From contig MNZN01000003.1 in the NCBI GenBank assembly GCA_001873625.1, positions 1-64,000 of the forward strand: 64,000 bases of DNA, read 5' to 3'. The notes below the pieces were generated by a model. The model was not told where the DNA came from. It was given only the letters and a program-made list of their open reading frames with translations, and did not search any database. A program made the position numbers and the translations under genes. Position 1 is the stretch's first letter; each line of letters starts with the position of its first letter. This stretch comes from Candidatus Saccharibacteria bacterium CG2_30_41_52 (lineage in GTDB: Bacteria > Patescibacteriota > Saccharimonadia > Saccharimonadales > Saccharimonadaceae). Of this stretch, positions 23,371 to 34,894 are shown piece after piece.

Positions 23371-23477
23371 AGGGCCAGGAGGGAATTAGTCACCTGTAAT
23401 TTTCTTTGAAAATTCATTCGACCCCGCCTCAGACAACTTAATGGTTGTCGAGGTTTCAATTCCCTGCTGGATACATT
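23371..23477 (-). repeat. tRNA-associated structured element (copy L, downstream of tRNA-Lys)
   Basis: CCAGCAGGGAATTGAAACCTCGACAACC (antisense of tRNA-Lys 3' half) - GTTGTC - TGAGGCGGGGTCGAATGAATTTTCAAAGAAAATTACAGGTGAC - TAATTCCCTCCTGGCCC (sense tRNA-Lys 3' end). Confidence 0.85.
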
Positions 23478-23522
23478 CCAAATAAAAATGACTATCCTGA
23501 CGGATGGTCATTTTTATTTGGA
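23477..23522 (-). terminator. Terminator-like palindrome anchored on tRNA-Lys CCA
   Basis: tccaaataaaaatgactatcctgacggatggtcatttttatttgga. Confidence 0.8.
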
Positions 23523-23595
23523 GGGCCAGGAGGGAATTGAACCCTCGACAACCTACTTAAGAGGCAGGTGCTCTAACCAGCTGAGCTACTGGCCC
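23519..23595 (-). tRNA. tRNA-Lys (anticodon CTT), CCA encoded
   Basis: GGGCCAGTAGCTCAGCTGGTTAGAGCACCTGCCTCTTAAGTAGGTTGTCGAGGGTTCAATTCCCTCCTGGCCCTCCA; discriminator appears to be T. Confidence 0.92.
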
Positions 23596-23697: not shown

Positions 23698-23726
23698 TTT
23701 TTTGCAAGGCTTAACCTTGCAAAAAA
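23698..23726. terminator. Bidirectional terminator-like hairpin
   Basis: ttttttgcaaggcttaaccttgcaaaaaa. Confidence 0.6.
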
Positions 23727-23798
23727 TATCCAGATGATAACACCTTAGTTGTTCATATTAGTCGATACGATAAAAACGGCTGTCAATTAGTTTTAGAC

Positions 23799-33577: not shown

Positions 33578-33616
33578 AAACAAAATCCGTATCATTAGAT
33601 ACGGTTTTTATTTTGG
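33575..33616 (+). terminator. Terminator-like palindrome anchored on tRNA-Gly CCA
   Basis: ccaaaacaaaatccgtatcattagatacggtttttattttgg. Confidence 0.85.
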
Positions 33617-33770
33617 TACGCGTCGAAAATCGAACTTTCATCGTAGCGATTCGCTGAACAGCGAAGAACGGATGAGAGTTCGTGAAGCGACGGGCAATAA
33701 AAATCAGCTTGCTTATTTTTGTAACCGAGCGGAAATAAGGAGGATTTATCCGACTGCTTTCTCTCCGCTC
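33614..33770 (+). repeat. tRNA-associated element (copy G, divergent core, downstream of tRNA-Gly)
   Basis: TCGAAAATCGAACTTTCATCGT (antisense tRNA-Gly 3' half) ... CGGATGAGAGTTCG - [75-nt insert] - TTTCTCTCCGC (sense tRNA-Gly 3' half split in T-loop). Confidence 0.75.
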
Positions 33771-33775
33771 TTTCT

Positions 33776-34192
33776 CTATTCTGCAGCTTCGGCTTTTTCT
33801 GACTCTTCCTTGGTCACATGTACCGTTCCGTGTGGGTGCTGTGGTGGTGCATAAATCGAATAAACCTTCAATGGAACATCCCCATTGCTAATCAGATTGT
33901 GCCAAGTGCCGGCCGGCACAACGATTGCATCACCGTCACCAACCTGCCAAACTCGTAATTCATTCTTGCTTGGCCCCATACTAACGGTTGCTTGGCCTTG
34001 TTCAATTCGTAAAAATTGGTCATGTGTTGGATGAGCTTCCAGTCCAATATCGTGTCCTGGTTCAATCGACATCAACGTGATTTGAAGATTACTGCCTGTC
34101 CATAAAGTAGTTCGATAATTCGTATTTTCAATCGTTGCAGCCTCAATTCCAGTAACAAGTGGACTTGGACCGTTATCTATAATTTCTGTCAT
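33776..34192 (-). CDS. Cupin-domain protein
   Basis: LMSIEPGHDIGLEAHPTHDQFLRIEQGQATV...GDAIVVPAGTWHNLISNGDVPLKVYSIYAPPQHPHGTVH. Confidence 0.88.
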   Translation of the reverse strand: MTEIIDNGPSPLVTGIEAATIENTNYRTTLWTGSNLQITLMSIEPGHDIGLEAHPTHDQFLRIEQGQATVSMGPSKNELRVWQVGDGDAIVVPAGTWHNLISNGDVPLKVYSIYAPPQHPHGTVHVTKEESEKAEAAE

Positions 34193-34722: not shown

Positions 34723-34894
34723 ACACCCAGGGATTGGATCGACCAACGACTTTTTGTGAAACAAAAAATGTCGTTGGTGAGCAGTGCAAGTCTGCACTGC
34801 GCAAGGCCGGAGCCTGGATTGCGAACGCGACCAAGCGAGGCGGGGTAGATGTATTTTCTGGAAGAAAATAACCGTGACCAATTCCAACCCAGTG
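34721..34894 (+). repeat. tRNA-associated structured element (copy R, downstream of tRNA-Arg(TCT))
   Basis: CACCCAGGGATTGGATCGACCAACGAC (antisense) ... GTCGTTGG - TGAGCAGTGCAAGTC...ACCGTGAC - CAATTCCAACCCAG (sense tRNA-Arg 3' end). Confidence 0.9.

What the first reader, a model, noticed from the sequence alone, without database searches (positions are those of the whole stretch)
23371..23522. Shortened copy of the element behind tRNA-Lys
On the minus strand, after the CCA...TGG palindrome, CCAGCAGGGAATTGAAACCTCGACAACC is nearly the exact antisense of tRNA-Lys 3' half. It is followed by GTTGTC, then TGAGGCGGGGTCGAATGAATTTTCAAAGAAAATTACAGGTGAC, then TAATTCCCTCCTGGCCC, the sense tRNA-Lys 3' end. 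The core lacks the 5' hairpins but keeps TGAGGCGGGGTC-hairpin-GTGAC. This looks like an internal deletion between the two TGAG motifs of the full core. It defines the minimal conserved module.
Basis: seen in the sequence. Interest (0 to 1): 0.78.

Follow-up and report, generated by a model that had tools for sequence, protein, structure and literature searches.

The report
Deleted copy of tRNA-invading hairpin element
Next to a lysine tRNA gene of a tiny Saccharibacteria genome lies a truncated copy of an undescribed non-coding hairpin element that repeatedly inserts into tRNA genes across the candidate phyla radiation; the short copy is a deletion relic, but the family behind it looks new and its mobilising enzyme is unknown.

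Summary
Behind tRNA-Lys(CUU), minus strand 23371-23522, lie a terminator hairpin, an antisense copy of the tRNA 3' half, and a sense 3' half interrupted by 43 nt. Those 43 nt match the end of the full element behind tRNA-Leu(UAG) at 42/43 positions. The tRNA-Lys locus of a close relative carries the full-length element, so the window copy is an internal deletion of about 64 nt. It is a one-off relic, not the "minimal module".

The family is the interesting part. A three-hairpin core of about 101 nt (98% of pairs kept, 28 of 30 with compensatory changes) occurs about 22 times in this genome, always beside a tRNA. It also occurs across Saccharibacteria and, in a simpler two-hairpin form, in other CPR classes. 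It sits after a G and replaces exactly 2 nt of a tRNA, usually in a loop, almost always in sense. An intact tRNA copy and an antisense arm lie alongside. Nested and non-tRNA insertions lack these. Cores resemble cores at other tRNAs of the same genome, so they spread. Rfam and the libraries searched gave no match. G-U pairs are depleted relative to tRNA stems, hinting at single-stranded DNA hairpins. No enzyme was identified.

The parts
23519..23595 (-). tRNA-Lys(CTT), intact
   Evidence: ARAGORN; Rfam tRNA 70.6 bits
23478..23521 (-). AT-rich bidirectional terminator-like hairpin that includes the tRNA CCA
   Evidence: sequence; fold
23443..23470 (-). A: antisense copy of the tRNA-Lys 3' half (T-arm and part of the acceptor), 2 mismatches; one lies at the complement of G53 next to the insertion point
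   Evidence: G53 pattern
23432..23437 (-). p: sense remnant GTTGTC of the tRNA variable loop/T-stem, pairs with A
23389..23431 (-). truncated core: TGAGGCGGGGTC + hairpin H3 + GTGAC; H1 and most of H2 deleted
   Evidence: 42/43 to the Leu-TAG copy; alignment with full-length orthologue; R1 hit 26.7 bits
23371..23388 (-). Q: displaced sense 3' end of tRNA-Lys after the core (T-loop C56 to acceptor)
34778..34878 (+). full class A core behind tRNA-Arg(TCT), same arrangement (terminator, antisense arm, interrupted T-arm)
   Evidence: R1 109 bits
42853..42954 (+). full class A core behind tRNA-Pro(TGG)
   Evidence: R1 118 bits
8633..8733 (-). full class A core in the D-loop of a partial tRNA-Glu 5' copy upstream of tRNA-Glu(TTC) (5'-type element)
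   Evidence: R1 112 bits
33100..33185 (-). class B core behind tRNA-His (different H2)
33578..33790 (+). class C (different core) element behind tRNA-Gly(TCC), with an antisense arm as well; end approximate

Best explanation
The short sequence is an internally deleted, probably inert copy of a mobile non-coding element. Shown: (1) the full element has a structured core of about 101 nt (hairpins H1, H2, H3; ends TGA..GTGAC, no terminal inverted repeats, no room for a gene). (2) In mapped tRNA insertions it lies directly after a G (usually GG), replaces exactly two nucleotides, and points in the sense direction of the tRNA. (3) Insertions into other cores or non-tRNA hairpin loops are simple. 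(4) At tRNA genes an intact copy of the gene lies next to the interrupted copy, with an antisense arm in between. (5) In the window's tRNA-Lys copy about 64 nt were lost between the (N)GAGG of the tRNA arm and the TGAGG of the core. Inferred: the core is mobilised in trans as a folded single strand (single-stranded DNA favoured over RNA) into structured RNA genes. At single-copy essential tRNA genes only events that leave or regenerate an intact gene survive, which yields tRNA - terminator - antisense - interrupted 3' half. The antisense arm pairs with both sides of the insertion point and keeps the junction nucleotide (G53) unpaired or un-targetable. Likelihoods: deletion derivative of the family about 0.95; family mobile about 0.8; single-stranded-DNA rather than RNA mobility about 0.6.
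For: Deletion: 42/43 identity and full-length orthologue. Family and structure: 99 aligned copies, 98.4% of cells paired, 28 of 30 pairs with both-side changes, none of 500 shuffles as good, slid controls 26-41% paired. Target rule: of 73 cores with both flanks mapped, 64 replace exactly 2 nt; 6 exceptions are class B copies with misplaced model ends and 3 are ambiguous. Mobility: patchy presence (20 of 28 genus genomes, 34 of 119 relatives); occupied and empty orthologous tRNA-Lys loci; a core's nearest neighbour is in the same genome 24 of 64 times (expected 5.9) but at the same tRNA only 5 of 64 (expected 2.7). Nested and non-tRNA insertions L182, L183, L172, L187, L084, L148 without antisense arm. 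Tandem modules from successive insertions L055, L060, L062, L138. DNA-level hint: G-U in 61 of 2814 core cells (2.2%) against 7.6% in tRNA stems of the same loci. Antisense arm not a passive copy: complement of G53 mismatched in 24 of 35 arms, 0-8 of 35 at the other positions 46-61.
Against: No transposase, integrase or reverse transcriptase could be tied to the element. RVT_1, IS110, TnpB C-terminal domain and RtcB are missing from G000, and Y1 transposases do not track copy number and carry their own REP ends. Gene conversion between copies could mimic within-genome similarity. The strong sense bias and the restriction to stable-RNA genes would also suit RNA-level insertion. G-U depletion could come from hairpin-templated repair rather than function. 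How the antisense arm forms is not shown.
Confidence: 0.74

Rival explanations
1. RNA-level retro-insertion: the core RNA is inserted into loops of tRNA or other structured transcripts and returned to DNA by reverse transcription; the antisense arm arises by self-priming from the terminator hairpin 3' end of the pre-tRNA.
For: Sense orientation at tRNAs, targets are stable RNAs (tRNA, a probable tmRNA, cores); direct repeats of L105 and L110 run from the T-loop through the terminator, close to a transcript 3' end; the antisense arm continues the terminator 3' strand through GG of CCA.
Against: No RVT_1 reverse transcriptase in G000, G003, G004 and most relatives; no RtcB; G-U pairs depleted; 5'-type elements have the opposite polarity.
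Confidence: 0.25
2. Host-beneficial cis RNA: arm plus core form a regulatory or processing RNA of the tRNA, and the short copy is its functional minimal module.
For: Strong covariation; the arm/core junction is systematically maintained; even the short copy folds with the closing stem, arm hairpin and H3.
Against: Absent at many tRNAs and in many close relatives; occurs at 5' or 3' sides, in D-, anticodon-, variable or T-loops; nested copies and copies without a tRNA exist; the interrupted copies decay; the short form is unique among parsed copies.
Confidence: 0.12
3. RNA-guided homing element: the antisense arm is a target-derived guide spanning the empty insertion site, and the core is the scaffold of an unknown ribonucleoprotein.
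For: The arm spans the uninterrupted site, is re-set to each tRNA (6-9 exact nt plus AA in other CPR classes), and carries a specific mismatch opposite G53, as self-protection would need.
Against: No TnpB C-terminal domain or IS110 transposase in this genome; nested and non-tRNA insertions have no arm; arms are partly diverged.
Confidence: 0.1
4. No mobility: tandem inverted duplications of tRNA genes followed by gene conversion of a resident repeat.
For: The sense-antisense-sense layout is typical of template switching at palindromes.
Against: A 2-nt replacement after G at different tRNA positions, nested insertions, and occupied against empty loci need insertion. The clear downstream antisense arms in class-A-free G010 belong to class B or C elements.
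Confidence: 0.07

Closest known systems
REP / REPIN sequences mobilised by RAYT (TnpA-REP) Y1 transposases (PMC3116915, PMC8266576)
   Same: Short, non-coding, hairpin-forming, multi-copy, spread within genomes, pairing at DNA level; Y1 genes occur in many of these genomes.
   Different: The core has three hairpins and about 101 nt, sits in tRNA genes, replaces 2 nt, and does not flank the Y1 genes of G000 (which have their own REP palindromes).
Rickettsia palindromic elements (from general knowledge)
   Same: Small structured elements inserted into genes, including RNA genes, in a reduced genome, with unknown machinery.
   Different: No sequence relation tested; RPEs are known mainly inside protein genes; no tRNA restoration with an antisense arm is known to me.
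IS200/IS605-derived MITEs (IS608, ISDra2 type)
   Same: Subterminal hairpins, insertion beside a short fixed motif, single-strand logic possible.
   Different: No autonomous partner with these ends found; exactly 2 nt are lost at insertion; duplicated target at tRNAs.
Tyrosine-integrase elements at tRNA 3' ends
   Same: T-loop to CCA region is duplicated so that the tRNA stays intact; tandem accretion.
   Different: About 100-nt unit without genes; many different tRNAs and loops; simple insertions elsewhere; antisense arm.
IS110 bridge-RNA and TnpB omega-RNA elements
   Same: Structured RNA next to target-derived sequence; 2-nt core in IS110.
   Different: The proteins are absent from this genome.

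Membership tests
REP/REPIN-RAYT | RAYT (Y1) gene flanked by the same repeats | tested here: not met
   Three Y1 loci of G000 carry no R1 core within 1.5 kb; they have their own palindromes.
REP/REPIN-RAYT | 20-40 nt single palindrome with GTAG-type foot | tested here: not met
   Three hairpins, about 101 nt, near-invariant ends TGA and GTGAC.
REP/REPIN-RAYT | Dispersal tracks a Y1 transposase | tested here: inconclusive
   G004, G009, G005, G001 have cores and no Y1 hit; G010 and G023 have Y1 and no R1 hit. Absence could be loss or assembly gaps.
DDE-type MITE | Terminal inverted repeats and short target duplication | tested here: not met
   Ends TGAG and GTGAC are not inverted repeats; simple insertions replace 2 nt.
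Retroelement with its own reverse transcriptase | RVT_1 protein in genomes that carry the element | tested here: not met
   No RVT_1 match in G000 and in most of the carriers of the genus.
IS110 / bridge RNA | DEDD transposase | tested here: not met
   2 of 28 genus genomes only, not G000.
TnpB omega-RNA element | TnpB C-terminal nuclease domain | tested here: not met
   0 of 28 genus genomes with PF07282.
Any Rfam RNA family | Match at gathering score | tested here: not met
   Only tRNAs in the window; permissive scan of the Arg-TCT element gives nothing plausible.
tRNA-integrating element with integrase | Integrase gene in the element | tested here: not met
   No gene fits the roughly 100-nt core; an enzyme acting in trans was not tested.
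Rickettsia palindromic elements | Sequence or structure homology | not tested
   No RPE model at hand.

The most novel reading that the evidence does not exclude
A CPR-wide class of protein-less mobile elements whose folded single strand, together with a target-derived antisense arm re-set at each insertion, directs insertion at G|NN in tRNA and other structured RNA genes: a guide-bearing homing element with an unknown trans-acting enzyme, protected from itself by the mismatch opposite G53.
Probability: 0.15. Interest if true: 0.9.

Novelty: new variant of a known kind. Interest (0 to 1): 0.6.

Why it matters
The short copy itself is only a relic. The family shows that in tiny parasitic CPR genomes roughly half of the tRNA genes can be invaded by the same structured element while translation is kept, through a stereotyped duplication with an antisense arm. 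That poses a testable question: which enzyme inserts a gene-less hairpin element at G|NN of tRNA genes and loses exactly two nucleotides? It also supplies a covariance model and an explanation for puzzling partial tRNA copies around CPR tRNA genes.

Tried and rejected
Rfam scan of the window and of one full element: nothing but tRNA and chance hits. Exact core pattern in viral contigs: none. Core against phages: none; against plasmids: only a 35-nt chance match in Sinorhizobium. The idea that RAYT/Y1 REPs are the element ends was rejected for G000, though one Y1 gene lies at a tRNA-Ile module in L062. Group II or retron-type reverse transcriptase, IS110, TnpB and RtcB as machinery: not supported. 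The palindrome-first idea (antisense arm exists before the core) was weakened, because the two clear arms in class-A-free G010 belong to class B or C elements. A simple LINE-like target-primed model was rejected because 5'-type and 3'-type elements have opposite polarity. A hairpin-capped break model explained the 3' form but not the 5' form. Literature searches for tRNA-inserted repeats in Saccharibacteria/CPR found nothing relevant.

Full report
Notation: P = tRNA sequence before the insertion point, NN = the two nucleotides replaced, Q = tRNA sequence after it, A = antisense arm, p = short sense copy of the end of P in front of the core, core = the structured element.

1. The observation. 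The 43 nt equal the last 43 nt of the full core behind tRNA-Leu(TAG) of the same genome at 42 positions; the best match in shuffled window sequence is 24. A covariance model (R1) made from 17 full copies also finds the short copy.

2. It is a deletion. The orthologous tRNA-Lys(CTT) locus of a close relative (G020, L122) has the full core. Its p arm reads GTTGTCCGAGGG before the core, with an extra base compared with the tRNA. The window reads GTTGTC T GAGGCGGGG, so about 64 nt were lost between (N)GAGG at the end of the tRNA arm and TGAGG inside the core. In the predicted fold of the short copy the core's GAGG takes over the pairing of the arm's GAGG. The short form is not a conserved module: no other copy of this form was seen among 105 distinct parsed cores. 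Outside Saccharibacteria the conserved form is H2 + H3 closed by a short A:Q stem, and the short copy lacks H2.

3. The family. In this genome (825 kb, 39 tRNAs) there are 17 full class A cores, 4 class B cores with another H2, and the short copy, each beside a tRNA on the same strand; 18 of 39 tRNA genes carry at least one. R1 hits 34 of 119 relatives, 20 of 28 in the genus. It also hits a few percent of genomes across the phylum, and the inspected hits of other classes with a tRNA or tRNA-like flank have the same layout. Named contigs place the Saccharibacteria form in Candidatus Saccharibacteria. Structure: 98.4% of 2814 cells are standard pairs, 28 of 30 pairs have both-side changes, none of 500 shuffles reaches any of these values, and slid structures give 26-41%. 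The alignment was fitted to the model, so the figures lean towards it.

4. Insertion rule. In 64 of 73 cores with both flanks mapped, the core stands in place of exactly two tRNA nucleotides, always after a G, mostly GG: T-loop after G53, D-loop, end of the D-stem, anticodon loop, variable loop, once the acceptor stem. Six of the other nine are class B copies whose 3' end the model misplaces; by eye they obey the rule. Only one core (L094) was seen in antisense to a tRNA; the parser itself counted only same-strand tRNAs, so this was checked by eye among the remaining hits, several of which are at contig ends. Nested cases are simple insertions: a class B core inside a class A core (GGCGGG|GT|CGCGG, L182), class A inside class B (GGGG|TC|GCGG, L183; a similar case in L172), a core in a 5' tRNA copy (L187), and cores in a hairpin loop of unknown RNA (L084, L148); a copy at a tmRNA-like 3' end is L189. 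So the core is the moving unit.

5. Around tRNA genes. Two layouts occur: tRNA - terminator - A - p - core - Q (3' type), and promoter - P - core - sense - antisense - promoter - intact tRNA (5' type). In L105, L110 and L111 the part from T-loop through terminator is repeated on both sides of the insert, nearly or fully exactly. Tandem modules show repeated insertion at one tRNA (L055, L060, L062; L138). In class-A-free G010 only 2 of 32 tRNAs show a clear downstream antisense arm, and both belong to class B or C elements, against 13 strong cases of 39 in G000. The simplest reading is that only insertions that leave an intact gene survive at single-copy tRNAs; how the arm forms is open. The arm is not merely passive. 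In 35 distinct arms the complement of G53, the base next to the insertion point, is mismatched in 24, while each other position from 46 to 61 shows 0-8. Either the target is destroyed in the arm or the junction base must stay unpaired; both imply a sequence-specific machine. This is inference.

6. Mobility. Cores most resemble cores of the same genome (24 of 64, expected 5.9), not cores at the same tRNA elsewhere (5 of 64, expected 2.7); some pairs at different tRNAs are nearly identical (G003 His and Glu). Orthologous tRNA-Lys loci are empty, full or decayed in different species. Gene conversion remains possible as a contributor. The G-U content of core helices is 2.2% against 7.6% in tRNA stems of the same loci, which favours pairing as DNA or hairpin-templated correction over a classical RNA.

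7. Machinery. Not found. Y1 transposases exist but carry other REP ends in G000 and do not track copy number. RVT_1, IS110, TnpB C-terminal domain and RtcB are absent from G000. One Y1 gene with its own REP ends sits at the GAGG| position of an old tRNA-Ile module (L062), a lead only.

8. Comparison with the known. It works most like REP/REPIN or IS200/IS605-derived miniature elements, but fails their tested defining features. No Rfam family matches, nothing was found in viral contigs or phages, and no description turned up in the paper library, which is incomplete. I therefore call it a new family of small mobile structured elements, a new variant of a known kind, with the window's tRNA-Lys copy a decayed member.

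Noticed in passing
window 33578-33790; L014, L020, L032, L047 and others: A second, unrelated-looking core (class C, TCGCGAAGTGAA..CGGAGGAG..GATA) occupies T-arms behind other tRNAs (Asp, Tyr, Gly-TCC, Ser, Leu-TAG), also with antisense arms, and nests behind class A copies.
   Followed up: partly
window 23701-23735: REP-like palindrome TTTTTTGCAAGGTTAAGCCTTGCAAAAAA between tRNA-Arg(TCG) and tRNA-Lys, resembling the palindromes that flank the Y1 transposase genes of this genome (L050).
   Followed up: no
L062 2480-3180: Y1 transposase gene with its own inverted REP ends inserted at the p arm (GAGG|) of a second tRNA-Ile module, the position where cores insert.
   Followed up: partly
L084 1390-1650, L148 400-600: Conserved hairpin loop AGAGGGGGTGGGCACC of an unknown RNA, target of core insertions in two families; no Rfam match.
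   Followed up: no
L189 200-550: tmRNA-like 3' end followed by terminator, antisense arm and a core, so tmRNA may be a target too.
   Followed up: no
L138 430-640: Tandem array of the whole unit (3' half, spacer, arm, H2+H3 core) behind tRNA-Arg in another CPR class.
   Followed up: no
L003 (G000:C4:38208-38760): tRNA-Ile flanked on both sides by partial copies of itself, each interrupted by a core (D-loop copy upstream, T-loop copy downstream).
   Followed up: yes
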